Below, piece by piece: positions 31,323 through 63,798 of a stretch of 64,000 nt of DNA; position 1 is the stretch's first letter, and each line of letters opens with the position of its first letter. Below the pieces are notes generated by a model. It saw nothing but the letters and a program-made list of their open reading frames with translations, did not search any database and was not told the origin of the DNA. The position numbers and the translations under genes were made by a program. Source of the DNA: Bradyrhizobium sp. PSBB068 (GTDB taxonomy: Bacteria > Pseudomonadota > Alphaproteobacteria > Rhizobiales > Xanthobacteraceae); assembly GCA_016839165.1 (NCBI GenBank), contig CP069300.1:3534001-3598000 (forward strand), written 5' to 3'.

Positions 31323-31361
31323 CACTGGCTTTTCCGAGTCTTTAGGATTCGTAAGCCAGTG
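31323..31361 (+). promoter_or_regulatory. Stem-loop directly before the kinase ribosome-binding site
   Basis: CACTGGCTT (31323-31331) and AAGCCAGTG (31353-31361) form a 9-bp perfect stem with a 21-base loop. It ends just before AGGGGAA and the ATG at 31377. It could control translation of the very large kinase or be an operator. Confidence 0.5.
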
Positions 31362-31376
31362 CGTAGGGGAAATTAC

Positions 31377-37670
<6,294 letters not shown>

Positions 37671-44445: not shown

Positions 44446-45003
44446 TCAGTCCTCGATCATCAGACCCGACGGCAAGTAAGCAAGTAACTTTCCGTCCGGC
44501 GGACCGTATCTCCAAAAGCGGGCGGCGCGGTGAAAGCCATCGATTAATATCAGAAAGCTGAACGAGCGGCCAAACGTGATCGGATCCGCAGGAAATTCAT
44601 AGCTCGTTCCCTTGCGAAGCACGTTTCGAGGATCATCTGGATCGACGCTTGTCGTTGTCATGTATTCCTCGAACGAAACAAAGCGTCCCTCGCTTTCGGG
44701 ATCCCACACATTTGGCGGCACGAACATCGAGCCCAATCTGGTCCGGCCAATTTCGATAACGTCGAATGAGAGCACTCCGGTCAGAAATGCGAGCAGGACG
44801 GGCCGAGCGCAAGCGGTACCAAAGGCGAGCTCATATTGTTCGGCTTCGGACAACTGCTCGAATGCCGTCCCGCTCGATCGCTTTGTGACGAGATGCTCCA
44901 GATGAGAATAGTGCCGGGCGGCCGCAGAATCTGTCAGCTCGCTGTAAGCCCATCGAGCTTGAACTTCCAACAGGGGCACGTTTTGCAGTCTCAAGTCATC
45001 CAC
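44446..45003 (-). CDS. Hypothetical protein downstream of the giant glycosyltransferase gene
   Basis: A 185-residue soluble protein, start GTG 45003, 72 bases after the giant glycosyltransferase gene and on the same strand, so probably co-transcribed. It contains LQNVPLLEVQARWAYSEL at the N-terminus and a C-terminal beta-rich half ending FLILIDGFHRAARFWRYG. The phrase IDGFHRAA suggests a ParB/Srx-like nucleotide-binding motif, but the preceding part does not fit well. I do not assign a function. Confidence 0.65.
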   Translation of the reverse strand: MDDLRLQNVPLLEVQARWAYSELTDSAAARHYSHLEHLVTKRSSGTAFEQLSEAEQYELAFGTACARPVLLAFLTGVLSFDVIEIGRTRLGSMFVPPNVWDPESEGRFVSFEEYMTTTSVDPDDPRNVLRKGTSYEFPADPITFGRSFSFLILIDGFHRAARFWRYGPPDGKLLAYLPSGLMIED

Positions 45004-45075
45004 TTTCTCTCGATCGAAATTGGGCTAGCTCTATCCAGGCCATTCCGCGATTGCGCCACATTGACAGTAATCGCG

Positions 45076-48000
45076 CTATTTGGTGCTCAGCCGGTCGCTG
45101 ACACCATCGTCGCGCTGAACCACCAGGGGAGGGATGCAGACGTAGCTTTGCAATGTGGGATAAGCCAAGTTCATAGCGCCGTCGATCCCCTGATCCTGAT
45201 CGACGATCGATGTTCCTGGAAACGGCACGAACTGCTTCTTGAGCGGCAGAACGCTGCCCAAGAGGCGCCTCGCTCCGCGTGGACTAATTGAGTATGCCTG
45301 TGTTCCGTAGGCGTGCCTGAGCCTGTGGGGGTGATAAATTGGTCGGCCGTCCGAAGTATCGCTCCAGGTAAAAGGTTCGGTTCGATCGTAAAACCGCATC
45401 TCCGAGGCGGAGAATCCAAGATCGATCCAGAGGAAAAGTGGATCGTAAATGAACCCCCACAATATTATATCCCAATCGGTTGGAAGCTGGGCCAGCACCG
45501 CCAGGCGGTGCTCATCGAATACAGGATGACTAAGCGCGTCGTCCTCGAAGATCGTCAACGGCTGGTCTTGAGACGCGGCCTTTTGCCAAAGCTGTATGTG
45601 AGACAGCGCGCAACCCAAGGCTCCCGCGCTGTAGTCAAGTTCAGGGGCAATGAGCCCTTGTCTTTCGAGGTCTAAGCGATCCAGCTTGCGGCCGTCGATC
45701 GCTGAAACTCGCTCAAAGTTGCCGAGCTTGGCATTGCGAGATCTGAACTTATCCCAGCGAGCCGTGCTTCGGTCCAAATTGATTACATGAATAGCATTCG
45801 CTGATTGCTTATTCTTTTGCGCCGCTCGAAATGGCGCGTTTGACCCCTTTGCTAGCAGGTACGAACCTAAGCCATTTGATACGATCGAGCGAGCCGCAGC
45901 CTCGGCGCCGATCGGATTTAGGTGAAATGCGTCTTGAAAAATGTCGGTACGGCCAGCCAATTGCGCTTCCAAATCGCACAGGGCGTGTTCTCCAGAACGA
46001 GCAGCCGCGCGAGTGGTCTCGTTGATCAGTACGCGAGTTCGGGCGATGCCGGGATCGATACTTTCGTCCCGCAGATGGGGAATAGTCGCGAACCAAAGCT
46101 CGATACCAAACGATCGCGCGGCTAGGGAAAAGAGATCGAGTAGCCGACGACGATCCGCGACGTTCGGCGCGGAAAGCAGGTTTTGGTCGCGCCACGAGTT
46201 GTTTGCATTAAGGTCGACGATCGGCTCGAGCCAACAATCGCGGCTCCAAAAGCTCGACTCGAGATTCGCAACATCCACATCCACAATCCCTGTCATCAGA
46301 ATGACGACGTCAGGCTTGAGCGGTATGATCTTGTTGAGAAACAAGTTCAGCATATGGAGAGTGGTCGCACCGCTGTAGCCCCCGTTTCTCACGATGACAT
46401 CTACAGCATTCTCGCTACGCAGAATGGTCTCTAGCTTTGCGCAAAATCGGTCATCGGGATCGAGGTACATACCTTCGACCACGCTGTCGCCGAGAACGAT
46501 CACGGTTTGGGCCGCTGTAGTCGGGGACTTTGATCCACGAATGAAGCCGAGAGCGTCAGTCTCCAGAAGATATGGCTTTCGGACGAGAGTATGATTCCGA
46601 CTTTGGACGTACTCATCTGAAGGTGTGTGAGAGAAGGACGCATTTGCCGGATACTCCTTCAATCGTATCGCTCTTTTCCCATCGCTGGCTGGAACGGTGT
46701 CCTTTCTCGGTGCTTCCCGTGCGGGCTTGGCGGCAAGTTCTCCGGCGATCAGCGGTCGGATTGCCTCCCCATCGGACGCGAAGGTCAGCCATCCGTAGAC
46801 TTCGCGAGTGTCTAATATCTGTGAGATTCCCGCGCGTCGCGCGCTGTCGGCGAATACCACATATTCATACCGGCCCGATCCATCATCGTAGGTCAATTGC
46901 GGTATGGCGTCTGCGCGAACCAGATATGTGCAATGCACCACCGGCACCTCGTGGAGGCCCGGCGACGACCGGCTGAGAATAGTGTTGTATTCGTCGCTCG
47001 GAAGAAAATATCCGTTCGCGTCGATCTTCTGGTGATAGTTCGAGTACAGCGGCCGGTCGGCGTCGACACACTTGAGCAGCGGCGCTACGATCGGAAGATT
47101 GAGTTCTACAAGGTGCCGCAAGGTGAGGGGACGTAGGTAGTTGTCGACGTCGACCACGAAATAATAGTCGCATCCCAGAGCCAAAGTCTGGTTCATGCTG
47201 TGTTGGCGAATTCGACCTAGCACGGAGAAGCGAGTGGCATTCCACTCATGGTCAGCAAAGTCCTGAACGCGTTCCGAAACATTGCTATCGTCAAGTTCTA
47301 CGTGCGAATATCGCGATCCGACACGCTGAAGCCAGTCCCGGAGAATTTCGGCGGTATCATCCCGGTTGTTGTTGGTCCGGACGTGGAGCGCGATCCGCTC
47401 CGACGGATAGTCGAGCGCTTCGATGCAGTCCAGAAACAGCGGCAAGTGGCCAGCTTTGCTTTTGGCAAGAATTGCTATCAGCACTTTGGGAAGCGGACGA
47501 TTTCCGTCGGGTTCATTGAGTGCATTCGGTAGTTCGACCCTTTCGGATATCCGGTCCTTCGCAAAACGCAGATTGTCTTCTACGCGGCTTCTCAGGCCTT
47601 CATCGATTGACGGATTCTGAAGGATGCGAAGGCAGGCGTCCATGCAGCCTTGATAATCGCCAGCCCAAAAAGCGTTGACGGCGAATTCATCGAGTAGTCC
47701 GAACTCATAGATCCATTCCTCGGCGAACAGCGCTCCAACAGGCATCGGCAAATCAATGCCGCGGCGCGCGATATCAGCTCCCTCCTTGTTGCGACCCTTT
47801 GAACGGCAGTAGCGGCTGGCACCATGCAACGCCTCAGCTCGCGCGAGCTGAGAATCGGCGGCCCGCTGATAAGCCGCGATGACCTCGTGTTCAGGATGAT
47901 CGAGCGCTTCCTTGAGCCGCGCCGCAGAATAGAGAGAAATAAAGACCTCTTCCTGCCAAAAGCCCATTTCAGCGCGCGCCAAGTAGTGGGGCAGCGCTTT

Positions 48001-50763
48001 CTCGGGCTCGTTGCAGTCACGATAGCTTTGAGCAAGGTAGAACGTGTAACGAGAGCGGAGAAACGCGTCCGTCTCGTTCTGCAGGGCGCCCTCCAGCAGC
48101 GCTGCATCTTTGCGGTATTTCTCGGGATCCTGGCTGCGTGCACCGCCGCCGCCAATCTGGATCGCAAAGCCGGAAGCGGTCTCCCGACCGCGAGCGTCGG
48201 CCGGCGCTTCCACGAACTCGTGCAAGACACCTCGAAAATAGAACTCCTTCTTGTTGCTGCAAAGCTGAGGCCGATGATGGCGGATGCCGTTGTGGTTGAT
48301 GGCCACGTCATAGAGGTCGGCAGTCATGCCAGACTTGAAGGCGGCGACGTCAAACCCCGGCTCGATGGTGAGCGCGTCATCGGCGTCGATGATGAGGGCG
48401 TAGTCGACGTCCGGGTTCCGGCGCAGGCAAGCGAGCGCATGCGATCGGTTGTAAGCGAAATCCCGCCAGGGTTCGTCGATGACTTCGCCTGTCAATCCAT
48501 TGCTGTCGAGCCACTGTCGTATGATGTCTTGCGTGCCGTCGGTCGAGCCGGTGTCTTCGATCAACACATAGTCGATCATCGGTCGAACGCTGTCGAGGCA
48601 ACGAACGATAACCGCCGCCTCGTTCTTGACGATCATGCACAGGCCGATCGACTTTCCGTTTGGTTTCGACAATCCGGACTCCTTGACCACAGGCTCTTTA
48701 TTGCTGCGCTCGTTCTCGCACCGCTGGGAAGACGGAGCAGCTGAAACCGCGGTTGGCGGCGCCGAATTGCCTTCAAGTGCAGTACTCACTTCGGCCGCCT
48801 CAATCGAGGCGATCCAGGATTCGCTATCGGCGACACCGTAAGATACGAGCAGGCGACGGCCGTCTGGATGCCAAGCCAGCCCCGCCGCGAACTCGACCCC
48901 TTTTTCCTTGAAATAGAACGGGCGACTAAGCCGGCGCAGATTATTTTCGCTATCGAACCATACAAAGCGATGCTGATAGAACCTTCGATCGTTCTGCCAC
49001 TGAACTTCATGAACGAGTGCGAGCCATCCTTCGTCAAACTCAATGAGTTGTGTTCCGCCTCGGAACTGTTCGACGGCGAAGCCGGCATCGCTCTCTGAGA
49101 CGGTTTCACCCCTGTCGTTTACGATCCTGGTCGGGTCGCATGAGTAGATGAAATGCAGACTTGCGCCCTTGGCTTGCGGCATCCAGTTCTTTTCATGGAG
49201 TCGTGGACCCTCAGGACGAAGCACGAGCCACTCAGCGAGTCGGGTTTCCGAATTGCTTCGTTGTTCAATCCGGGCGATCAACTGTTCGCACCAGCCTTCA
49301 GCATTCAACTCGCGGACGCATGAGCTGCCCCATAGCGAGCCATTCCAACTGAACAAACGAATATCCTCGAGTCCTTGCACTTCCTCGAATTGGGTTTTTG
49401 GGAAGTCGGCGGGCAGCAGAAGTTCGGCCGCAGTTTCCACCTCAAGATCCGCGTTCAACCGTAGCAGATAGTTGCGCGTTCGAATGGGAGCGCCGTTATC
49501 TGTCTCATAGGTGCCGTCTTTGAGCAGGCGAAAATTCACTGTCCGCTGCACGAGATAGAGGTCATTTCCATGACGCGAGACAGAGGGATTGGTTGGCCGA
49601 TAGCCTTGAGGGACGTCGCAATCCACCTGTCGTGCAGAAAATGATCCAAATAGCCGCTCCGCCGGCTGCAGGTAAAAGAATAAGTTTGTCCGCGCGAGCT
49701 CACGTGGGGCGTCCGGAATTGCTCGGTTGAGCGCCAGGCTGTTGCAAATCGAGTAGCCACGGTCCCAGCGGGCGGCGTCCTGACTATAATTTGCGGCGAT
49801 CGAGAATTCCTCGCGAAGGCCGGTCTGGTAGACGTCGGTTTCAATGAAAAGGATGTCGTTTTCGGGGGCCGATATCGAAAGGCCGAGCTCGGAAAAGTGG
49901 AGGCTTGTCTCATACCTGCCGCGTTCTCGATAGTATCGTGCCAGTTCGTAAAGGGGTTCCGCGCGTGTCGGCCTTTGCTTGAACGCTTCAAGTGCCTTGC
50001 TGACGAAGCCGTCTTCGTCGCCCAGGTCTCGCAGGCACCGTGCGTGCTGCAGCCGTGCCATCCACGCTTCTTCGTCCCAGCCTTCCATGTCCGCGCGCTT
50101 GGCAAAGGCTGCGGCGGCTTCGACATATTGGCAGGCATCTCGGTAGGACCACGCAAGATAAAACCAGTACCGAGCGTTGTCGGGCTCAAGGTCGAGCGCC
50201 GCTTTGAGTAGTCGGATATCCCGCTCTGATTTGTCGCCACGATTCGATCCATCGGCGTGATCGATGTACCAGGCGCCCTGCAGTTCAACGACGTCTCCCG
50301 GGACGTCGATATATTCGTGCGTCACTCCAAAGTACTTCGAACCACTGTCACGCCGAACCAGTCGGGTGTTCCAGTAGCTCAATCCGCCCGACGCGCGCTG
50401 CAAGAGGCGGTAGCCTGGACCGGAAAGGGACTTACGAAATTCGGCGTTGTCGACGATGAGCTCCATATCGGCGTCGTTGAACAGGACGTAATCGAACTCA
50501 AGCTCTGAGGCGCAGGCACGATCGAGCGCGTCGTTCCGAGCTTGTCCGAAATCGTGGAACGGAATTGTATGAAGTTCTCCCGGAAGATTGCGCCGGGCAA
50601 AGAACGTCTTGATGAAGTCCTGCGTGCCGTCAGACGAACCGGTATCGCAGATGACCCAGCAAGCGATGTGGTCAGCGACCGCCGCCAGGCAGCGCTCGAG
50701 ATTTGCCACCTCGTTCTTGACGATCATGTTCAGGCAAAGGCGCTTATTTTCCACCACCGCCAA
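45076..50763 (-). CDS. Giant multidomain glycosyltransferase (GT2-TPR x2, COLGALT-like, SGNH, GT25)
   Basis: An 1895-residue protein of separate enzymes in one chain. (1) GT2 fold 1-170 (CDTGSSDGTQD, FNDADMEL), TPR to about 350. (2) A beta-propeller/GH130-like segment (about 350-690, GLEDIRLF). (3) A second GT2 (about 702-870: EDTGSTDGTQD, IIDADD) and TPR to 1080. (4) About 1090-1340: LIAILAKSKAG, HVRTNNNRDDT, VVDVDNYL, like the first half of animal procollagen galactosyltransferase. (5) SGNH hydrolase (about 1420-1645; VLGDSVVEG, FHLNP). (6) GT25 (1653-1895; VINLDRS, IFEDDA). Start TTG 50763 or GTG 50757; no ATG. Opposite strand to the collagen-like gene; inferred to glycosylate it. Confidence 0.9.
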   Translation of the reverse strand: MAVVENKRLCLNMIVKNEVANLERCLAAVADHIACWVICDTGSSDGTQDFIKTFFARRNLPGELHTIPFHDFGQARNDALDRACASELEFDYVLFNDADMELIVDNAEFRKSLSGPGYRLLQRASGGLSYWNTRLVRRDSGSKYFGVTHEYIDVPGDVVELQGAWYIDHADGSNRGDKSERDIRLLKAALDLEPDNARYWFYLAWSYRDACQYVEAAAAFAKRADMEGWDEEAWMARLQHARCLRDLGDEDGFVSKALEAFKQRPTRAEPLYELARYYRERGRYETSLHFSELGLSISAPENDILFIETDVYQTGLREEFSIAANYSQDAARWDRGYSICNSLALNRAIPDAPRELARTNLFFYLQPAERLFGSFSARQVDCDVPQGYRPTNPSVSRHGNDLYLVQRTVNFRLLKDGTYETDNGAPIRTRNYLLRLNADLEVETAAELLLPADFPKTQFEEVQGLEDIRLFSWNGSLWGSSCVRELNAEGWCEQLIARIEQRSNSETRLAEWLVLRPEGPRLHEKNWMPQAKGASLHFIYSCDPTRIVNDRGETVSESDAGFAVEQFRGGTQLIEFDEGWLALVHEVQWQNDRRFYQHRFVWFDSENNLRRLSRPFYFKEKGVEFAAGLAWHPDGRRLLVSYGVADSESWIASIEAAEVSTALEGNSAPPTAVSAAPSSQRCENERSNKEPVVKESGLSKPNGKSIGLCMIVKNEAAVIVRCLDSVRPMIDYVLIEDTGSTDGTQDIIRQWLDSNGLTGEVIDEPWRDFAYNRSHALACLRRNPDVDYALIIDADDALTIEPGFDVAAFKSGMTADLYDVAINHNGIRHHRPQLCSNKKEFYFRGVLHEFVEAPADARGRETASGFAIQIGGGGARSQDPEKYRKDAALLEGALQNETDAFLRSRYTFYLAQSYRDCNEPEKALPHYLARAEMGFWQEEVFISLYSAARLKEALDHPEHEVIAAYQRAADSQLARAEALHGASRYCRSKGRNKEGADIARRGIDLPMPVGALFAEEWIYEFGLLDEFAVNAFWAGDYQGCMDACLRILQNPSIDEGLRSRVEDNLRFAKDRISERVELPNALNEPDGNRPLPKVLIAILAKSKAGHLPLFLDCIEALDYPSERIALHVRTNNNRDDTAEILRDWLQRVGSRYSHVELDDSNVSERVQDFADHEWNATRFSVLGRIRQHSMNQTLALGCDYYFVVDVDNYLRPLTLRHLVELNLPIVAPLLKCVDADRPLYSNYHQKIDANGYFLPSDEYNTILSRSSPGLHEVPVVHCTYLVRADAIPQLTYDDGSGRYEYVVFADSARRAGISQILDTREVYGWLTFASDGEAIRPLIAGELAAKPAREAPRKDTVPASDGKRAIRLKEYPANASFSHTPSDEYVQSRNHTLVRKPYLLETDALGFIRGSKSPTTAAQTVIVLGDSVVEGMYLDPDDRFCAKLETILRSENAVDVIVRNGGYSGATTLHMLNLFLNKIIPLKPDVVILMTGIVDVDVANLESSFWSRDCWLEPIVDLNANNSWRDQNLLSAPNVADRRRLLDLFSLAARSFGIELWFATIPHLRDESIDPGIARTRVLINETTRAAARSGEHALCDLEAQLAGRTDIFQDAFHLNPIGAEAAARSIVSNGLGSYLLAKGSNAPFRAAQKNKQSANAIHVINLDRSTARWDKFRSRNAKLGNFERVSAIDGRKLDRLDLERQGLIAPELDYSAGALGCALSHIQLWQKAASQDQPLTIFEDDALSHPVFDEHRLAVLAQLPTDWDIILWGFIYDPLFLWIDLGFSASEMRFYDRTEPFTWSDTSDGRPIYHPHRLRHAYGTQAYSISPRGARRLLGSVLPLKKQFVPFPGTSIVDQDQGIDGAMNLAYPTLQSYVCIPPLVVQRDDGVSDRLSTK

Positions 50764-51247
50764 ACTTTTTCGGTTTCCGCAAGCAATTGTAAAAAGTTCA
50801 AACCAGGAAATATTGTGCTCGACGCCCTAGGTCAGCGAACCCGTTGTTCCATCGAACGTCGCGAAACAATTTAGCTGAAATTGTTCGGGCAGCAAATTCA
50901 GTGAGTTGTGCGCTACATGCGAGGTCAGCCCGCTGGTTAATGGAAATGGGGAGCGAAATAATTTGATGTATTTTGATTTCGATCTTGAATTTTCTTGCGC
51001 TCGCTTTCTCAGTCTGCTTTACATCTTAAGGGATAATTAATTTTGCGGTCCGTCTGCGATTCAGGCGGGAACTTTTTGAATGACGTTCAATCTTGGAATG
51101 TGATCTTCAGCGCGTTTTTGGCGACTGAAGTGAGTGTAGCGGGTACCACCCAAGGTTGAACCACTAAATTGTGGTTGGTTCGAGCGTCGGTCTCCGGACA
51201 AACGTGCTCCGGGATTCGATCTCGTGAAATGCGTTGGGTGGCGCCGT
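50764..51247. other. AT-rich divergent intergenic region
   Basis: 484 bases without a supported gene, visibly more AT-rich than the chromosome around it. It must hold the promoters for the giant glycosyltransferase gene (minus) and the secretion locus (plus). I see AT-rich promoter-like stretches such as GGGATAATTAATTTTG near 51030, but no strong consensus pair or dyad. Reading frames here are short. Confidence 0.5.
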
Positions 51248-51649
51248 ATGGTTAAGTCAGGTCCGGCCGATAAGTCGGCCTCTTCCCGCAGCTCTGTTTC
51301 CGTCACACCTCCCTTAACGGGAGAAGGCATTGCCAAATATGCGGGGCTTCTCTCCGCGGGCATCTCAAACGAAATCACGGTAACCGGATCGTTGCCGCGT
51401 GGCGCGACCACCCAGAACATTACCTACTTCGTCGTCGATCGAGCCACGAAGACGATCGTTTCCCAGGTCATTTTACCAGACGCGTCCGATCGCTTCAGCG
51501 CGGTCGAGATGCGGATGAAGGTCGGGCGCTACGCGAGTGCCTACGACATCGGCACTTTTGATTCGAACGGCGAGTTTACGGTCTGTCCGTTTCTGTCCGT
51601 CCGAAGCTCTCTGAGTCTCTCATCACCAAGCGGACCAAGTAGCAAATAG
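51248..51649 (+). CDS. Hypothetical beta-rich protein at the start of the secretion locus
   Basis: A 133-residue protein from ATG 51248. The first 30 residues are Ser/Lys-rich and disordered; the rest looks like an all-beta domain (GISNEITVTGSL ... ITYFVVDRATKTIVSQVILPD ... YASAYDIGTFDSNGEFTV). No signal peptide, as expected if it were secreted by the type I system, or cytoplasmic. I do not recognise it. It precedes the collagen-like gene by 101 bases on the same strand. Confidence 0.6.
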   Translation: MVKSGPADKSASSRSSVSVTPPLTGEGIAKYAGLLSAGISNEITVTGSLPRGATTQNITYFVVDRATKTIVSQVILPDASDRFSAVEMRMKVGRYASAYDIGTFDSNGEFTVCPFLSVRSSLSLSSPSGPSSK

Positions 51650-51720
51650 TCTGAACGCACTACAGAGCGTCTGCACATTGATTTGGGCTGAGGCGGCAAC
51701 CCGCGCTCGGCCTGACGTGA

Positions 51721-56646
<4,926 letters not shown>

Positions 56647-56672
56647 GGTCGGCGGCTGAAAAAGTGATGGAT

Positions 56673-56705
56673 GAGGAGGCCAGGGATCGCATCCCTGGGC
56701 TCCTC
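56673..56705 (+). terminator. Strong hairpin between collagen-like and metallopeptidase genes
   Basis: Two 15-base arms (56673-56687, 56691-56705) with one G-G mismatch and a CGC loop, 27 bases after the collagen-like stop. No T-run follows. It probably limits read-through, or protects the upstream mRNA, so that the structural protein is made in excess over the export proteins. Confidence 0.6.
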
Positions 56706-56728
56706 TCCGATCAGGCCGAGAATTGCCG

Positions 56729-57619
56729 ATGGTAGGCACTACGAAAATCAATCGCCGACGCTTCCTCGTTCTCTCGGGCAGCGCGGCGGTTCTTAGCGTC
56801 GTTGGAATCGGGAGGGGCTTCGGGCGCGAGGTCGCCCCGACAGAAGACCTTCGAAGCGCTCCGATCGAACTGTCGGGCGATTGGCATGCGGCGCCGACCG
56901 ACGCTGTGATGCGTGTACTCACGCGGATCCGGGAGGTCGATCTGTCGGGAATGCGATTGCTGTCGGATCGGCAACCCAGGAAGCTTCGTATCGAAAACCA
57001 TAGCGAAGTTGCGCCGGCGATCTGGCTGCACAGCGATCAGCCCGACATGGCTTCGATCGTCGTGAACATCGGCTATGCCGACTGGTGCAGGCTCGCGTAT
57101 CAATTCGGTCACGAGCTTGGGCATGTCCTCAGCAACAGCTGGCAATTTTCCGCAAAACCACAACCTCCGACACAATGGCTCGAGGAGGTGCTCGTGGAGA
57201 CATTTTCGGTTCGCGGCCTGCGGCTGCTCGCCGATAGCTGGGAGAAATCGCCGCCATTTGCGGGGGACGCAGGTTTTGCCCGTGCTGTTCGTCAATATGG
57301 CTCCGCGCTGCTGGACAAATTCAAAGCTGACTATCTTTCCCCGCTCAAGTGGTTCCGGATGAATCGCGCGAAGCTGGAAATTGGATCCGGCAAGGACGTT
57401 CTGTGGGGACCCGCGGTGGTCGGTGTCCTCCAGATCTACGAGGACGTCAAACCTGGCAAACCAACCTGCCTCGATGATCTCGGAGCCTTGAACCGCTGGC
57501 CGGAGCGGACCTCCGTTCCGATCGAACGCTATCTCGATTTGTGGACAGAAAGCTGTGTTGCAATTGGCTCCACCGGCGAATTGCCGTCCCGGCTACGGCA
57601 ATTGTTCGCGATCGCGTGA
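56729..57619 (+). CDS. Tat-exported zinc metallopeptidase-like protein
   Basis: A 296-residue protein from ATG 56729. The N-terminus NRRRFLVLSGSAAVLSVV is a twin-arginine signal, so it acts outside the cytoplasm. The zinc motif HELGH (residues 128-132) is followed by an LEEVLVETFS helix about 25 residues later that could supply the third (Glu) ligand, as in gluzincins. No named family is recognised. Between the collagen-like gene and its exporter, it may process the secreted protein or release it from the surface. Confidence 0.75.
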   Translation: MVGTTKINRRRFLVLSGSAAVLSVVGIGRGFGREVAPTEDLRSAPIELSGDWHAAPTDAVMRVLTRIREVDLSGMRLLSDRQPRKLRIENHSEVAPAIWLHSDQPDMASIVVNIGYADWCRLAYQFGHELGHVLSNSWQFSAKPQPPTQWLEEVLVETFSVRGLRLLADSWEKSPPFAGDAGFARAVRQYGSALLDKFKADYLSPLKWFRMNRAKLEIGSGKDVLWGPAVVGVLQIYEDVKPGKPTCLDDLGALNRWPERTSVPIERYLDLWTESCVAIGSTGELPSRLRQLFAIA

Positions 57620-57751
57620 GATGTCGGTGCGAGCAGGGTCCAATCGCGTCAACCAACTGGAGGGATTTCGGTGTTGCGACCGGTCGAATTCGTCTAGATT
57701 GCCGCGATATAGTGAAGATTTTTATTCTGTTGTCGATTTAGGAGGGTGACC

Positions 57752-60616
57752 GTGGACCCGCATAGCGGAGCCTTTGGGGAGCCGGGACCTGGCAAGTATG
57801 TCCGCTTGCTGCAGAACGCAATTGACGATCTTGGTGCGGACGATGAAGCGTCGCGTGATGCGCTTTACAGCCGGGCACGTGCCCTTTTGGAGAGCCGGCT
57901 CGCCGCCAGAAGGGATATGTCGCAGGCACAAATCGACACTGAGAAAGGTGATTTCGATCAGGCAGTATGGCGCGTCGAAGGGCAGGTCCGACCCGGCGTA
58001 ACGGCACCGGTGAGAACGCCATCGTACAATGTCCCCGGCGACCTGGATGTCATCCCGGCTCGGAGCGGTGACCGGTCACACGTTGTGGCGTCACGAGATA
58101 TTCGTTCCGAACGCCCGCGAGGACGCTCACGCGCCGCCAAAGGGCCGAGCACCTCGCGACGTGCCTGGCAAACGGCGAAAGCGCAATTCGCGGCGCGATG
58201 GTCCGGTCTCCCGCGTAGATTCATGGATAGTCTCCGTGGAGGCGGCGAGCTAGTGACCGATCTCGGTGTCCGCGCATGCCACTCCGCACAACGGATTTGC
58301 GCGGAGCTCGCCGCAAAGGTCAACGTAGAGGCTCTGTCAAAGCCGCTTGCCGTTTCATCCGCACCGAAATTAACCGGGGTTGATCCGCAACAAGGGCATT
58401 CAATCAATCGCCTGGACGCGCAACGCAGTCCGCAATACCAGGCACGACTGCAGGCGGTTATTCAGGTGGCCCGTCATTACGGCGTCGAGCTTGATGCCAG
58501 CGAATTGAGAGCTGGTGAACCCGATATCTATCCATCGGCTGCCGCACTCTCGACCTGGGCACAGAACGCCGGTCTGTGGTCTCGTGCGGTACGAACCAGT
58601 TGGCGGCACTTGCAGGGCATGAGCGAGGCTGGTCCCGTCGTCCTGTTGTTTGCCGATGGCAGCGCCGCGCTCATGGTTGGCGCAAACGGCGATCAGAATA
58701 TCGTTATGCTCAGGGATCCCGGCGCCCCGGCAGACGCGGCCGTGCCCGTCGATGAGTTGCGCCTTTCTCAGGTGTGGAGCGGTGAGGCCATCCTGGTGCG
58801 CGCGAGCCGAAGCGGCACTGCGGCCGACGCTCCGTTTGATTTGCGCTGGCTTTTCGATCTCGTTCTGCGCGAAAGGCGCTTGCTGCGGGACATCGGCATC
58901 GCCTCGCTCACCATCAGCTTCCTCACCATCTTCCCACCACTCCTGGTGATGACGATGGTGAACAAGGTCCTGCAATTTCACAGCACGTCGACTTTGGTGA
59001 TGCTTGCGGCAGTCATGGCGGTCGTCATCATTTATGAATCCCTCCTGGGACATGCGCGACGTCATATCATTGCGGTCGTCGGCGCGAGGCTCGACGCAAA
59101 ACTCAATCTGCACGTCTTCAATCGGCTGCTTCGCCTGCCACTGGATTACTTCGAGCGCCATCCTGCCGGCGAAACGATGTATCGCATCGCGCAGGTCTAT
59201 CGCGTTCGCGAGTTTCTGACCGGCCGCCTTCTGACGACGTTTCTCGACCTGATGACGCTTTGCGTGCTGCTCCCGTTCCTGTTCTATCTAAGTCCGATCC
59301 TCGCCAGCATTGTTCTTGGCTGCGCTTGCCTGATCTTGCTGATCATCATCGCATTCCTGAAGCCGATGCGAGAGATGTATGGACGGGTCGCCACCGCCGA
59401 GACGTGGAAATCGGCGACGCTCGGTGAGACGATCGTGGGGATCAAGACGGTCAAGGCTTTGGCGCTTGAGCCGCAACGTCGCGCCCTCTGGGACGAACGC
59501 ATTGCCGAGGCAGGAAAATGGCGGCTCGAATTCGGCCGCTTGTCCAATTGGCCGCAGACTTTGGTTACACCGATAGAGCGCTTGATGGTGCTTGGCACGA
59601 CCATGCTTGGTGCATATCTCGCGATGAGCGACCAGTCAGGCTACATGGTCGGCGGATTGTTCGCGTTCCTGATGCTGAGCGCGCGGGTCGCCCAGCCGCT
59701 GGTCGGGCTGGCGCGACTGATCGAGGACTATGAGGAGGTTGGGGCCGCGATTGGAGAAGCGAGCTCCGTTCTCAATCGGCCCACTGAGAGCGGTGCGCGA
59801 GCGGGAGGCTTGAGGCCGAAGTTCGCAGGTGAAATAGCCTTCCAGGACGTCAGCTTCACCTACCTCAACACAACTGTCCCCGCACTCGACAGGATCAGCT
59901 TCTCCGTTCCTGCCGGATCGACGCTAGGGATAGTTGGCCGCAGCGGATCCGGCAAGTCGACGGTTACGCGCCTGCTGCAGGGTATTAATCGTGACTACAA
60001 GGGATTTGTGAAGATCGATGGCGCTGATCTGCGCGACGTTGATCTACGGCACCTTCGACAGAGCCTCGGTGTCGTCTTGCAAGAGAATTTTCTCTTTCGC
60101 GGTTCCATCAGAGATAACATCATCGCCGGTCGACCGGGGCTGACCTTGTCCGATGCTGTTTATGCGGCAAGGCTCGCCGGTGCGGAGGAATTCATCGAGC
60201 GGATGCCCAATGGCTTCGAAACCTACATCGAAGAGGGATCTCCAAACCTTTCCGGCGGCCAAAGGCAGCGACTGGCGATTGCACGAGCGCTCATTGCAGA
60301 TCCACGCATCCTGATATTGGACGAAGCGACCAGCGCACTTGACCCGGAAAGTGAAGCCGTCGTGACGGCCAACCTTGAACGTATCGCCAGCGGACGGACA
60401 ATGGTCATTGTTTCGCACCGGTTGTCGTCGCTGGTCGGCTGCGATCAAATTCTAGTTCTCGATCAAGGTAAGATCGTCGACTGCGCTACGCACAACGTTT
60501 TGGTGGAGCGTTGCACGATCTACCGACAACTTTGGAACCAGCAGAACCGGCACGTCGAACCGACGCGCCAGTCGGTTACTCCGAAGCTGGTCACGGGCGG
60601 AGCGAACGCACCATGA
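57752..60616 (+). CDS. Type I secretion ABC transporter with degenerate C39-like domain
   Basis: A 954-residue exporter starting at GTG 57752 behind GGAGGG. Residues 1-225 are a long, polar, Arg-rich extension unusual for the family. Residues about 225-350 resemble a C39-like peptidase domain (VIQVARHYGVELDASEL, VVLLFADGSAALMVG) without the catalytic cysteine, as in HlyB/LapB exporters of RTX-like proteins. Six membrane helices lie from about 365 to 670, then the ATPase domain: GRSGSGKST, LSGGQRQR, LILDEATSALD, VSHRLSS. The stop overlaps the HlyD gene (ATGA). Substrate inferred: the collagen-like protein. Confidence 0.92.
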   Translation: MDPHSGAFGEPGPGKYVRLLQNAIDDLGADDEASRDALYSRARALLESRLAARRDMSQAQIDTEKGDFDQAVWRVEGQVRPGVTAPVRTPSYNVPGDLDVIPARSGDRSHVVASRDIRSERPRGRSRAAKGPSTSRRAWQTAKAQFAARWSGLPRRFMDSLRGGGELVTDLGVRACHSAQRICAELAAKVNVEALSKPLAVSSAPKLTGVDPQQGHSINRLDAQRSPQYQARLQAVIQVARHYGVELDASELRAGEPDIYPSAAALSTWAQNAGLWSRAVRTSWRHLQGMSEAGPVVLLFADGSAALMVGANGDQNIVMLRDPGAPADAAVPVDELRLSQVWSGEAILVRASRSGTAADAPFDLRWLFDLVLRERRLLRDIGIASLTISFLTIFPPLLVMTMVNKVLQFHSTSTLVMLAAVMAVVIIYESLLGHARRHIIAVVGARLDAKLNLHVFNRLLRLPLDYFERHPAGETMYRIAQVYRVREFLTGRLLTTFLDLMTLCVLLPFLFYLSPILASIVLGCACLILLIIIAFLKPMREMYGRVATAETWKSATLGETIVGIKTVKALALEPQRRALWDERIAEAGKWRLEFGRLSNWPQTLVTPIERLMVLGTTMLGAYLAMSDQSGYMVGGLFAFLMLSARVAQPLVGLARLIEDYEEVGAAIGEASSVLNRPTESGARAGGLRPKFAGEIAFQDVSFTYLNTTVPALDRISFSVPAGSTLGIVGRSGSGKSTVTRLLQGINRDYKGFVKIDGADLRDVDLRHLRQSLGVVLQENFLFRGSIRDNIIAGRPGLTLSDAVYAARLAGAEEFIERMPNGFETYIEEGSPNLSGGQRQRLAIARALIADPRILILDEATSALDPESEAVVTANLERIASGRTMVIVSHRLSSLVGCDQILVLDQGKIVDCATHNVLVERCTIYRQLWNQQNRHVEPTRQSVTPKLVTGGANAP

Positions 60617-62010
60617 GCGAAGTGCAGGCCAATTTGCTGCCGCTACCGTTCAGATCGAAGAAGAGCGATCCGACGTTGCCAGTGATTCTTGAATTCCAGC
60701 AACCGTCAACGGCGATTGTTAATGCACCTGTCCCGCGCGCAGCCCGTGGCACCGTCTGGATCGTCTCCAGCATGGTCGCTGCCTTGGTTCTAGTTGCGGG
60801 TGTATTGCCCGTCGATCAGGTCGTCACAGCGCGCGGCCTTGTGGTTTCGCAATCCTCCACCGTTCTCGTGCAGCCACTTGAAACCGCAATCGTTCGTTCA
60901 ATCGACGTCAGCGAAGGCCAGCGCGTGCGGTCGGGCGACGTGCTGGCACGGCTAGATCCAACCTTCGCGGAAGCAGATCGAGTGGCTTTAGAGGGGCAAC
61001 TGAACAGCCTTGAGCCCGAACTTGCGCGTCTGCGCGCTGAGGCAGATGGACAGCCGTTCACGTACTCCGGCAATGATCCAAATTGGACCTTGCAGGCCTC
61101 GATTTTCAACCATCGAAAGGCGCAATTTGATGCCAAGGTCGAGAACTACGAGCATCGCCTGCAGGAACTGAATTCCGTTATAGCGAGGGCGGACTCTGAT
61201 GCTGTAGGCTATCGTGATCGCCTCGGTGTCGCCCAAAGCATCGAGGATATGCGCCGGCAACTGGAGGCGACCCAGACCGGAAGTCGGCTGAACTCGCTGA
61301 TCGCAAAGGATACACGCGTTGAAATGCAGCGGTCGCTTTCCAACGCTGTTGCGACAGGGGAGGGGGCGAAGCGCGATCAAGCGGCACTTGCTTCCGACCG
61401 CGACGCCTACGTTCGTGGCTGGAAGGCTGAAGCATCGCAAAAGTTGCAGGAGATCACCGTCAAGGCGGCCGATACACGCGAGCTGCTGACCAAGGCGAAC
61501 CTGCGACGCAAGCTGGTCGAGATCCGCGCCGGGCTGGACGCGATCGTGCAATCGGTCGCAAAGGTCTCGGTAGGATCCGTCATGCAGTCGGGCCAGCAAT
61601 TCATTACGCTCGTGCCGGCAGACGCGCCGCTTGAGATCGAGGCCAACATCGCGGGCAAGGATAACGGCTTTGTGCACGTCAAGGATCCCGTGGCCATCAA
61701 GTTCGACACGTTTCCATTCTCTCAGTACGGTATGGCCGAGGGTGTCGTGCGCATCGTGAGCCCGGACAGCTTTAATGCTCAGGTAGAGGCGCGCAATCCG
61801 ACCAGTGCCATTCCGACGACGAATCTGGAGCCATTTTACCGAAGCCGCATAAGTATCGATCGGGTGGCCCTGCACGACGTGCCGGCCGGTTTCCAGCTCA
61901 CGCCAGGCATGCCCGTAACCGCTGATATCAAGGTGGGGCAGCGCACCGTACTAAAATACATGCTCGGCCTGATGCTTCCGGTGACGCAGGAAGCGATGCG
62001 CGAGCCCTGA
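60613..62010 (+). CDS. HlyD-family type I secretion membrane fusion protein
   Basis: A 465-residue periplasmic adaptor from ATG 60613 (overlapping the exporter stop; the frame is open to 60511 but that is within the exporter gene). A single N-terminal membrane helix (WIVSSMVAALVLVAGVLP, about residue 45) is followed by a lipoyl half (VVSQSSTVLVQPLETAIVRSI), a long coiled coil, the second lipoyl half, and a C-terminal beta-barrel (FITLVPADAPLEIEA). It links the ABC exporter to a TolC-type outer-membrane channel, which is not in this window. Confidence 0.93.
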   Translation: MSEVQANLLPLPFRSKKSDPTLPVILEFQQPSTAIVNAPVPRAARGTVWIVSSMVAALVLVAGVLPVDQVVTARGLVVSQSSTVLVQPLETAIVRSIDVSEGQRVRSGDVLARLDPTFAEADRVALEGQLNSLEPELARLRAEADGQPFTYSGNDPNWTLQASIFNHRKAQFDAKVENYEHRLQELNSVIARADSDAVGYRDRLGVAQSIEDMRRQLEATQTGSRLNSLIAKDTRVEMQRSLSNAVATGEGAKRDQAALASDRDAYVRGWKAEASQKLQEITVKAADTRELLTKANLRRKLVEIRAGLDAIVQSVAKVSVGSVMQSGQQFITLVPADAPLEIEANIAGKDNGFVHVKDPVAIKFDTFPFSQYGMAEGVVRIVSPDSFNAQVEARNPTSAIPTTNLEPFYRSRISIDRVALHDVPAGFQLTPGMPVTADIKVGQRTVLKYMLGLMLPVTQEAMREP

Positions 62011-62052
62011 TCGAGATGGCTTTGCTGTACGACCCGACGGAGCCTTCTGGAA

Positions 62053-63798
62053 ATGCTCTTTGATCGCTTGATCGGAAAGGCGTCACCCGAAACGGGGCTA
62101 CGCCGGGCGATCGCTCTTATCGAGAAAGAGCGGTTTGCTGAAGCGTTGCCGCATCTGGCCCGAATGGCAGAGGCCGGCAGCGCGGAAGCTGCATATTTTA
62201 TCGGAAAGCTCTACCTTCAGGGCGGTGGCGTTCCGTTCAGTCGAACGGAGGGCGCGCGTTGGCTGGAACGCGCGGCGTTGGATGGCCACGTGGAAGCGCA
62301 GTCCCTGCTGGCGGCGCTCTTGCTCCAAGGGCTCGGCCCGCAATCGCGTGAAAGCGGCGATGCTGCCGCGCGATTGTTTTCGCACGACAGCACGGCGAAG
62401 CCGGATTTCGAAGCCGCCCTGAAGTGGGCCCGTCTAGCGGCTGACGCCGGTTCTCCCGATGGGCAAGCTCTATTGGCTTACATTCTGACCTATGGTCCGC
62501 CGCCGCTCAGAGACCTCATACAGGCGAGGGAATGGTATCGCCGCTCCGCCGCCGCGGGCTGCGCGCAAGGACAATTGGGATATGCGCTGTCGCTTGCTGG
62601 AGACCCGAACCGGGCCGTTCATCGGGACGAGGTCGTCGAAAACATGCGAGCGGCGGCCGCCGCCGAAATTCCGACGGCCGTCTTCATGCTGGGTGTCCTG
62701 ACCGAAGGTGGGATCAGTGGCCCGCATGACCCGGGCGCCGCTGCTGAGCTGTACCGCAAGGCCGCAGAATTGGGACATCGCGGTGCGCAGATAAAATGGG
62801 GCACCTTACTGATTGAAGGCACGGTTGTTGCGAGAGACCTTGTTTTGGGAGAGACGTGGCTTCGTCGTGCGGCCCTGGCAGGCGACGTTCGTGCAGCGGA
62901 GTTGGTCGGCGACCTCTATGCAAAGGGCGGAGCACTACCGCCGAATTACGTGGAAGCGGCAAACTGGTATCGCCGCGCAGCTGAGGGGGGCAATGCGGCG
63001 GCGGCTCGGTCGTTGAGTTCATTTTACATGACCGGAGCCGGAGTACCTCAGGACAATCATGAAGCGGCCCGATGGTTGCGCATCGCTGCCGAGGCCGGAA
63101 ATGTAGATGCTCAAGTCGACGTCGGAAATGACCTGCTGGAACGAGCAGTCAGAGGAGAGGAATGCCCGCCGGTAGCGGATTGGTTCATGAATACAGCGCA
63201 ACGCGGCAATCTTGTCGCCGCGTTCAATCTTGGCGTATGCCTTCTCCAGGGCATCGGCGTTGAGCGCAACGAACAGCAGGCGGCCGTCTGGTTGCGGCGC
63301 GCTGCCGAAGGGGTTCCGGAGGCGCAGTTTATGATCGGTCGCCTATTTGCCGACGGCCGAGGTGTGCCGGCCGACCTGAAAGCAGCACGCGGTTGGTTCG
63401 CGCGTGCGGCGGAGGGAGGGATCACCGATGCTCAGGTTGCCCTGGCCGAGATGCTCGTGAACGGTCGAGGGGGACCACAAGACACTCCTGCCGCGCTCAA
63501 ATTATGCGAACAGGCCGCCGCGAAAGACCACGCTGGAGCAATGTTTGCACTAGGCGCAATGTATAGCGGCGGCCATGCCATTGCCGTTGATCGAGCCAAA
63601 GCCGAGCATTGGTTTCGCGCAGCCGCAGAGCGCGGGCATGGTCAAGCTCAACTCATGCTCGGGCGCTATTTGCGTAGCGGTGCGGCTGGCCATAGTGACC
63701 CTAAGGAGGCGAGCTACTGGCTGGAGCTGGCCGTTGCCCAAGGCGTCGTAGATGCAGACGCAGAGCTGGCGGAACTGACAAGAACTGCTTCAAGATGA
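62053..63798 (+). CDS. Sel1-repeat (TPR-like) protein
   Basis: A 581-residue protein almost wholly made of Sel1-like repeats, about fourteen units of roughly 36 residues (pattern AEAAYFIGKLYLQGGGVP..TEGARWLERAALDGHVEA, and similar). There is no signal peptide or membrane helix. Sel1 proteins are protein-protein scaffolds, in bacteria often linked to envelope, secretion or host interaction. It starts 42 bases after the HlyD gene and is likely the last gene of the secretion operon. Confidence 0.88.
   Translation: MLFDRLIGKASPETGLRRAIALIEKERFAEALPHLARMAEAGSAEAAYFIGKLYLQGGGVPFSRTEGARWLERAALDGHVEAQSLLAALLLQGLGPQSRESGDAAARLFSHDSTAKPDFEAALKWARLAADAGSPDGQALLAYILTYGPPPLRDLIQAREWYRRSAAAGCAQGQLGYALSLAGDPNRAVHRDEVVENMRAAAAAEIPTAVFMLGVLTEGGISGPHDPGAAAELYRKAAELGHRGAQIKWGTLLIEGTVVARDLVLGETWLRRAALAGDVRAAELVGDLYAKGGALPPNYVEAANWYRRAAEGGNAAAARSLSSFYMTGAGVPQDNHEAARWLRIAAEAGNVDAQVDVGNDLLERAVRGEECPPVADWFMNTAQRGNLVAAFNLGVCLLQGIGVERNEQQAAVWLRRAAEGVPEAQFMIGRLFADGRGVPADLKAARGWFARAAEGGITDAQVALAEMLVNGRGGPQDTPAALKLCEQAAAKDHAGAMFALGAMYSGGHAIAVDRAKAEHWFRAAAERGHGQAQLMLGRYLRSGAAGHSDPKEASYWLELAVAQGVVDADAELAELTRTASR

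What the first reader, a model, noticed from the sequence alone, without database searches (positions are those of the whole stretch)
44446..63798. Possible dedicated system for a secreted, glycosylated bacterial collagen
One continuous locus holds a 1631-residue Gly-X-Thr protein with a DUF4347 head, a Tat-exported metallopeptidase, a type I ABC exporter and HlyD adaptor, a Sel1 scaffold, and a divergent 1895-residue glycosyltransferase with modules like animal procollagen galactosyltransferase. The gene order, overlapping genes and lack of unrelated genes suggest one function: making and exporting a surface collagen-like glycoprotein. DUF4347 proteins are usually large type I-secreted adhesins; the combination with collagen repeats and a COLGALT-like enzyme is one I do not know as a described system.
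Basis: partly seen in the sequence, partly recalled or inferred. Interest (0 to 1): 0.92.

Follow-up and report, generated by a model that had tools for sequence, protein, structure and literature searches.

The report
Bacterial glycosylated-collagen export locus
A soil bacterium carries a conserved gene set that appears to make a threonine-rich collagen, decorate it with sugars and export it, including a sugar-adding module whose closest relatives of known structure are the enzymes that decorate animal collagen.

Summary
At 44446-63798 lie a 1631-residue DUF4347 + collagen protein (419 triplets, 403 with Thr in position Y), a Tat-type zinc peptidase, a type I ABC exporter, HlyD, a Sel1 protein, and a divergent 1895-residue glycosyltransferase whose residues 1084-1327 match human COLGALT1. 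In a phylum sample drawn without regard to collagen, all 4 peptidase-positive genomes of 398 have the whole set. Two corrections: the constant enzyme is the TPR-GT2 core, while the COLGALT-like module (12 of 47 enzymes) is one of several interchangeable add-ons; and the repeat has no lysine, so the acceptor would be Thr/Ser, not hydroxylysine. Best reading: a cytoplasmically O-glycosylated collagen exported by a dedicated type I system, analogous to serine-rich-repeat/accessory-Sec loci. Glycosylation, export and triple helix are inferred, not shown. My paper searches found no description.

The parts
44446..45003 (-). 185-aa protein of unknown family, downstream of the glycosyltransferase on the same strand
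   Evidence: ORF; no Pfam match; found only in the two closest loci, L056 and L059, 84-86%: an optional part
45076..50763 (-). 1895-aa multidomain glycosyltransferase (TPR-GT2, TPR-GT2, COLGALT-like GT-A, SGNH, GT25)
   Evidence: DxD, EDD, GDS and DxxH motifs present
49684..50763 (-). first TPR-GT2 core (residues 1-360)
   Evidence: 31-34% identical to the second copy; GT2 Pfam 2 stretches; residues 10-204 hit SunS 7msp, E 6.8e-5
47584..48666 (-). second TPR-GT2 core (residues ~700-1060), like GmaR and SunS
   Evidence: PDB GmaR 22ao E 2.8e-9, residues 701-801; NCBIfam SunS E 4.8e-15, residues 700-778, far below its cut-off
46783..47514 (-). COLGALT1/LH3-like GT-A module (residues 1084-1327) with DVD motif at 1205-1207
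   Evidence: DxD kept in 23 of 27 related stretches, three loci of which appear twice
45901..46497 (-). SGNH/GDSL hydrolase-like module (residues 1423-1621)
   Evidence: Pfam PF13472 E 1.4e-11; GDS and DxxH motifs
45250..45795 (-). GT25 module (residues 1657-1838) with EDD 1740 and DWD 1763-1765
   Evidence: Pfam PF01755 E 1.5e-16; motifs
50764..51223 (.). shared divergent regulatory region between the two halves
   Evidence: 84% mean column identity over three genomes with long invariant blocks; no sigma-70-like promoter found
51224..51649 (+).
   Evidence: 56-82% identical homologues upstream of the collagen in Bradyrhizobium loci; more distant relatives in L090 and L103 carry a full DUF4347; no Pfam match
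51751..56646 (+). 1631-aa collagen-like protein
51769..52257 (+). DUF4347, caspase/CPD-like head with invariant His61 and Cys104
52258..52533 (+). beta-strand cap between DUF4347 and the repeat
   Evidence: strands in the model, low confidence; aligned
52534..56334 (+). collagen region, 413 + 6 Gly-X-Y triplets, Y = Thr 403 of 419, no Lys
   Evidence: tandem DNA repeats
56335..56643 (+). non-collagen C-terminal tail ending LPKHDS, probable type I secretion signal
   Evidence: 89-93% conserved in the two nearest relatives; terminal motif in 31 of 36 complete collagens
56723..57619 (+). 298-aa Tat-type zinc peptidase (HELGH, gluzincin-like)
57746..60616 (+). 956-aa type I ABC exporter with degenerate C39-like domain (no catalytic Cys)
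   Evidence: TIGR01846 HlyB 540 bits, below its cut-off; PF03412 E 0.039 over 236-353, below cut-off; no Cys between 185 and 506
60610..62010 (+). HlyD-type periplasmic adaptor
   Evidence: TIGR01843 392 bits, cut-off 208.65
62053..63798 (+). 581-aa Sel1-repeat protein, no signal peptide seen by eye
   Evidence: Pfam Sel1, 9 stretches; conserved next to ABC/HlyD

Best explanation
A dedicated biogenesis locus for a secreted, O-glycosylated bacterial collagen. Shown: the gene set and its conservation. Inferred: (1) in the cytoplasm the TPR-GT2 core of the large glycosyltransferase places a first sugar on Thr/Ser of the Gly-X-Thr chain, and the add-on modules (here COLGALT-like, GT25 and an SGNH module that could add or remove acetyl groups) extend and tailor it; (2) the chain leaves C-terminus first through the ABC exporter, HlyD and a housekeeping TolC, guided by its tail ending in (L)PKH/LKPH; (3) the DUF4347 head, translated first and exported last, acts as an N-terminal retention or self-cleaving module; (4) the Tat-exported zinc peptidase trims the N-terminal part or polices the exporter from the periplasm, in the manner of LapG on LapA; (5) three chains wind into a surface or matrix fibre in which sugar on Thr replaces hydroxyproline as stabiliser. 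The Sel1 protein is a cytosolic scaffold coupling glycosylation to export.
For: Co-conservation: 63 of 71 peptidase loci have Gly-X-Thr collagen on the same contig (46 within the fetched flank; 15 just outside it; 2 more, L085 and L115). GT core in 62 of 71; ABC in 25, HlyD in 16, Sel1 in 18 within the flanks only, with ABC-HlyD-Sel1 found further out in several Mesorhizobium loci. No such run in 44 kb of the window or in 33 kb downstream. COLGALT module alone as bait: 8 of 10 places in an order sample (the own locus included) lie beside a collagen-like run or the exporter/peptidase set (at least three are loci of the 71 met again). GT2 cores resemble SunS and GmaR. HlyB-type exporter with no C39 Cys. 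Common C-terminal motif in 31 of 36 collagens against 19 of 973 ORFs of the same loci. Conserved divergent promoter region.
Against: No glycan, secretion or triple helix has been observed. The repeat is poor in Pro (12 in residues 261-1531), so stability without sugar is uncertain. The TPR-GT2 family (320 proteins) and the COLGALT-like module (463 proteins at E 1e-10) occur in many other multidomain proteins whose surroundings I did not check. The peptidase is Tat-type while a type I substrate bypasses the periplasm. Eight of 71 peptidase loci show no collagen: L078, L108, L111 and L112 end at contig edges on the side where it would lie; Rhodopila globiformis (L132) has peptidase and GT but no collagen in 37 kb examined; L124 is a second copy in M. 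sophorae with none of the partners in about 60 kb; L139 is a fragment; L138 is a weak planctomycete match. Two of the 10 COLGALT places (both in G492) have no such partners. The COLGALT DxD is lost in 4 of 27 modules, all in Xanthobacter and Ancylobacter. The C-terminal motif was chosen after seeing the data, artefact frames were filtered out, and many of the sequences are from one genus.
Confidence: 0.72

Rival explanations
1. The glycosyltransferase builds a polysaccharide (capsule, LPS side chain) that the exported collagen binds or that is merely co-regulated; the collagen itself is not glycosylated.
For: GT25 family members act in LPS synthesis (family description); add-on modules include Caps_synth, pyruvyl- and methyltransferases; relatives occur in many other proteins; Rhodopila has peptidase and GT without collagen nearby.
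Against: No polymerase, flippase or priming transferase among the locus genes; the enzyme has TPRs and SunS/GmaR-like GT2 units; a Thr-rich chain is beside the peptidase in 63 of 71 loci.
Confidence: 0.18
2. DUF4347 is an enzyme (protease) displayed or delivered by the collagen fibre, for instance against competitors, and the collagen is a stalk.
For: Caspase/CPD-like predicted fold with invariant His61/Cys104; the T6SS protein Tce1 (PA0256) has DUF4347 and a putative His/Cys dyad (PMC8262886 and PMC13323088, passages read).
Against: Collagens of the same system in L125, L133 and L063 lack DUF4347; no obvious immunity gene in the locus; DUF4347 heads large ORFs (1879-14095 aa) in 12 other genomes of the genus sample that lack the peptidase.
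Confidence: 0.12
3. A conventional type I adhesin with a collagen spacer; peptidase and glycosyltransferase are hitch-hiking neighbours on a low-GC island.
For: GC 0.51-0.62 except the repeat, against 0.645 in the left flank; next to tRNA-Ser here and in 3 of 7 other Bradyrhizobium loci.
Against: The same partners keep together in Xanthobacter, Ancylobacter, Methylobacterium and Mesorhizobium with rearranged order, which hitch-hiking does not predict.
Confidence: 0.05

Closest known systems
Serine-rich-repeat glycoproteins with the accessory Sec system (GspB, Fap1, SRRP)
   Same: Long repetitive Ser/Thr polypeptide glycosylated inside the cell, dedicated exporter, and an exporter component (Asp2) that O-acetylates the sugars (PMC5578698, abstract); glycosyltransferases encoded beside the adhesin (recalled)
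   Different: Gram-positive, SecA2/SecY2 instead of type I secretion; serine repeats, not collagen; GtfA/GtfB are GT4 (recalled), not TPR-GT2
Animal COLGALT1 / LH3 and mimivirus collagen-modifying enzymes
   Same: Residues 1084-1327 are homologous to COLGALT1 and LH3; both DxD motifs found essential in GLT25D1 (166-168, 461-463; PMC3244457, passages) have counterparts at 1205-1207 and 1763-1765; mimivirus modifies its own collagen (review PMC8968730, passage)
   Different: Substrate repeat lacks Lys, no lysyl hydroxylase among the locus genes; an SGNH module separates the halves; much larger protein
BclA and other bacterial collagen-like proteins
   Same: Thr-rich Gly-X-Y; BclA is glycosylated (review PMC8968730, passages read)
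   Different: BclA is a spore-surface protein; no type I exporter, no such peptidase, no DUF4347 (recalled)
LapA-type retained type I adhesins with LapG protease (recalled)
   Same: Type I export, N-terminal module exported last, periplasmic protease encoded nearby
   Different: LapG is a cysteine protease and LapA has RTX repeats; here a zinc peptidase and no RTX nonapeptide
DUF4347 large adhesins and Tce1
   Same: Same head domain
   Different: The genomes of the other 12 DUF4347 ORFs in the genus sample lack the peptidase; Tce1 is a type VI cargo

Membership tests
Collagen-like proteins (PF01391) | Long Gly-X-Y repeat above the family cut-off | tested here: met
   451 bits, cut-off 27.2; 413 + 6 triplets
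Collagen-like proteins (PF01391) | Forms a triple helix | not testable with these tools
   needs circular dichroism or microscopy
DUF4347 (PF14252) | Profile match over the whole domain | tested here: met
   127 bits, cut-off 24.6, 1-164/164
Clan CD / CPD-like cysteine peptidase | Caspase-like fold with His/Cys dyad | tested here: inconclusive
Collagen galactosyltransferase (COLGALT) | N-terminal GT-A domain with first DxD | tested here: met
   DVD 1205-1207
Collagen galactosyltransferase (COLGALT) | C-terminal GT25 half with DxD and the RMQV stretch | tested here: inconclusive
   GT25 half aligned weakly (18 bits), DWD present; the COLGALT1 alignment ends at 1769, before RMQV would follow; by eye the window reads otherwise there
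Collagen galactosyltransferase (COLGALT) | Acts on hydroxylysine of collagen | tested here: not met
   no Lys in the repeat of the neighbouring collagen; Lys only at 4, 84, 1531, 1553, 1583, 1628
Type I secretion system | ABC exporter plus HlyD adaptor of the type I families | tested here: met
   HlyD above cut-off (TIGR01843); ABC best hit is TIGR01846, 540 bits, but below its cut-off 725.55
Type I secretion system | C-terminal uncleaved signal in the substrate | tested here: inconclusive
   conserved tail and terminal motif, no secretion assay
RTX adhesins | GGxGxDxUx nonapeptides | tested here: not met
   0 in the collagen
Gluzincin metallopeptidases | HExxH plus downstream Glu in a thermolysin-like fold | tested here: met
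Serine-rich-repeat / accessory Sec locus | SecA2/SecY2 translocase and serine-rich repeats | tested here: not met
   exporter is ABC/HlyD and the repeat is Gly-X-Thr: an analogue in layout, not a member

The most novel reading that the evidence does not exclude
The COLGALT/LH3-like GT-A module is an ancient collagen-reading glycosyltransferase domain: alphaproteobacteria use it to glycosylate Thr of Gly-X-Thr collagens, and the machinery that decorates animal collagens shares descent with it through the module's original use on bacterial collagen.
Probability: 0.22. Interest if true: 0.92.

Novelty: new variant of a known kind. Interest (0 to 1): 0.74.

Why it matters
It would be a Gram-negative, type I-secreted counterpart of the glycoprotein-adhesin loci of streptococci, built around collagen, in rhizobia and other soil and water bacteria. 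It offers a directly testable case of Thr-glycosylation standing in for hydroxyproline in stabilising collagen, a source of collagen glycosyltransferases whose modules are exchanged, a function for the orphan DUF4347, and a lead on where the animal collagen galactosyltransferase domain came from.

Tried and rejected
Rejected: that the collagen ORF is a frame artefact. The repeat is open on several frames (one search lists a 1210-aa ORF on the - strand and a 1275-aa ORF on another + frame), but head, tail and neighbours are conserved around the collagen frame.

Rejected: that the COLGALT module defines the system. It is in 16 of 71 peptidase loci by tblastn and in 12 of 47 main enzymes by Pfam (47 of the 56 loci that had a complete frame of at least 450 aa, one enzyme each; nine loci were left out to stay under the residue limit).

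Rejected: that DUF4347 marks the system. In the genus sample 18 of 146 genomes have DUF4347, 6 of them with the peptidase.

Led nowhere: a profile of the head against PDB sequences found nothing; no sigma-70 promoter in the divergent region; Pfam on the 141-aa and 185-aa proteins and on the tail found nothing. PF01391 alone is useless as a marker: 134 of 146 genomes match. L167 was fetched as a neighbour of L115 but its contig length differs, so it was dropped; the right contig was found. My C-terminal motif was first too narrow (7 of 46, frame artefacts included), then widened and tails with over 12% Arg+Trp dropped as artefacts (31 of 36): post hoc. The tRNA-Ser beside the locus is not universal: it is seen in 4 of the 8 Bradyrhizobium loci whose Sel1 side was held (yes L003, L058, L061, L062; no L057, L060, L071, L072).

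Literature: ten searches. None listed a collagen-like/type I/glycosyltransferase locus in alphaproteobacteria; only open-licence papers are held. Seen: passages of PMC3244457, PMC8968730, PMC8262886, PMC13323088; abstract of PMC5578698; all other papers as search listings only. Recalled, from no call: LapA/LapG, functions of SunS and GmaR, HlyB C39-like domain, GT family and location of GtfA/B, BclA not being type I secreted, meaning of HExxH and twin-arginine motifs.
Full report
WHAT IS THERE. The window is part of a 7.54-Mb contig of a 7.67-Mb genome. The genus is Bradyrhizobium by inference: genomes placed in its genus have contigs of the same length as named Bradyrhizobium contigs. Every gene named in the finding is open at its coordinates; the domains claimed are found by Pfam, except that the peptidase has no Pfam family and the COLGALT likeness rests on the PDB comparison. 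The collagen has 413 + 6 triplets; Y is Thr in 403 of 419, X is Ala 236, Ser 115, Gly 43; the repeat holds no Lys and 12 Pro. The DNA of the repeat is tandem, with 54-bp and 108-bp periods among others.

THE GLYCOSYLTRANSFERASE. From the N-terminus: two TPR-GT2 units 31-34% identical to each other, a GT-A module (1084-1327) whose PDB relatives are human COLGALT1 (E 2.3e-35 for the whole protein) and LH3 (E 2.8e-13), an SGNH module, and a GT25 module that matches the C-terminal half of COLGALT1 weakly. Both DxD motifs reported essential in GLT25D1 (residues 166-168 and 461-463, PMC3244457) have counterparts aligned with them, DVD 1205-1207 and DWD 1763-1765. The first GT2 unit hits SunS (residues 10-204, E 6.8e-5), the second GmaR (701-801, E 2.8e-9), and the NCBIfam SunS model matches the second unit far below its cut-off; I recall both as protein or peptide glycosyltransferases.

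A MISSED GENE AND THE ENDS. A 141-aa ORF at 51224-51649 lies 101 bp before the collagen. It copies the strand-rich cap that follows DUF4347; orthologues at 56-82% stand in the same place in other Bradyrhizobium loci, and in L090 and L103 the counterpart carries a full DUF4347. The region between the divergent halves is 84% conserved over three genomes, with long invariant blocks. Beyond Sel1 come a tRNA-Ser(TGA) (L003 c1491-1580, which is 64491-64580 in window numbering, 0.7 kb from the Sel1 stop), then by eye rlpA-, dacC- and tmk-like genes. The same tRNA-Ser stands beside the locus in L058, L061 and L062 but not in the held stretches of L057, L060, L071 and L072. GC is 0.51-0.62 outside the repeat against 0.645 in the left flank.

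CO-CONSERVATION. The zinc peptidase is the most discriminating marker. Genus sample: 8 of 146 genomes, all 8 with Gly-X-Thr collagen near it on the same contig (for G280 the collagen lies in L170, fetched under another handle from a contig of the same length). The COLGALT module is in 3 of 146, DUF4347 in 18 of 146. Named species genomes: 71 loci in Bradyrhizobium, Mesorhizobium, Xanthobacter, Ancylobacter, Rhodomicrobium, Methylobacterium, Microvirga, Rhodoblastus, Blastochloris, Reyranella, Rhodopila and others. Of the 71, 46 have a run of at least 10 triplets with mostly Thr in Y inside the fetched flank; 15 more have one just outside on the same contig, contigs being matched by length; L085 and L115 were resolved last: 63 of 71. 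The other eight are L078, L108, L111 and L112 (contig edges; L078 has the exporter set and L108 a DUF4347 head), L132 (Rhodopila, peptidase and GT but no collagen in 37 kb), L124 (second copy without partners), L139 (fragment) and L138 (weak match). The glycosyltransferase core is in 62 of 71, the COLGALT module in 16, a DUF4347-type head in 30, ABC in 25, HlyD in 16 and Sel1 in 18 within the flanks. For the exporter parts these are lower bounds, because in the Mesorhizobium loci followed further the exporter lies beyond the collagen. Phylum sample, drawn without regard to collagen: 4 of 398 genomes have the peptidase, this one and three of the same order; all four have collagen, GT, ABC, HlyD and Sel1 on the contig. 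Two of the three share contig lengths with loci of the 71 and so are not independent data.

WHAT VARIES. In 47 main enzymes (one per locus, 47 of 56 loci with a complete frame of at least 450 aa) GT2 occurs in 47, Gly_transf_sug in 19, Anp1 (the COLGALT-like module) in 12, GT4 in 8, GT25 in 7, with rarer pyruvyl-, methyl- and GT7 modules. So a constant core carries interchangeable tailoring modules, as expected if sugar structures diversify under selection. With the COLGALT module as bait in 397 genomes of the order, 9 genomes and 10 places were found; 8 of the 10 lie beside a collagen-like run or the exporter/peptidase set (own locus included; L189 has the exporter set and ends at a contig edge; the run in L185 is collagen-like but not Thr-pure), while the two places of G492 have none or only a Gly-rich stretch. 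Some of these places are loci of the 71 met again. The first DxD is kept in 23 of 27 stretches, three loci being counted twice, and is lost in two Xanthobacter and two Ancylobacter modules. The module occurs in 463 proteins at E 1e-10 or better (best 120 listed); their surroundings were not examined.

HOW IT PROBABLY WORKS. Cytoplasmic O-glycosylation of Thr, C-terminus-first export by a dedicated HlyB/HlyD-like pair, retention or self-processing of the N-terminal head, and trimming by a periplasmic zinc peptidase. The first step rests on conserved adjacency and on the kinship of the GT2 core; the second on gene content and the tail; the last two are by analogy with LapA/LapG and are the weakest. 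The best analogue of the whole is the serine-rich-repeat/accessory-Sec locus, where glycosylation, O-acetylation and export are coupled (PMC5578698, abstract).

VERDICT. I found no description in ten paper searches, of which bear on it directly, but only open-licence papers are held. The individual parts are known kinds; the assembled system is, as far as I could see, undescribed.

Noticed in passing
31896-34895: About 11 copies of a 276-bp tandem repeat inside a 2103-aa ORF (31359-37670); from the repeat unit I guess a poly-HAMP sensor kinase, not tested.
   Followed up: no
L003:1491-1580 (64491-64580 in window numbering): tRNA-Ser(TGA) directly behind the locus, also beside it in L058, L061 and L062 but not in four other Bradyrhizobium loci; a possible integration site. 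No integrase was looked for.
   Followed up: partly
L057:5809-6579: A second zinc peptidase (46% identical) near the complete locus of G301; second copies also in B. mercantei (L072/L114) and M. sophorae (L124/L135).
   Followed up: no
L140, L141, L142: DUF4347 in open frames of 13,832-14,095 aa in three genomes of the genus: probably giant adhesins; the peptidase was not found in these genomes.
   Followed up: no
L157, L160, L161: Some Mesorhizobium loci hold two large collagen genes in tandem, with runs of up to 638 triplets; one run of 672 in L165.
   Followed up: partly
L062 / L076 (B. viridifuturi): Collagen and peptidase appear split over several frames; decayed locus or assembly error in the repeat.
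   Followed up: no
L132, L205, L206 (Rhodopila globiformis): Peptidase and GT core together but no collagen run in 37 kb: the one clear case of the pair without its collagen.
   Followed up: partly
44446-45003: 185-aa protein of no known family after the glycosyltransferase, found only in the two closest loci.
   Followed up: partly
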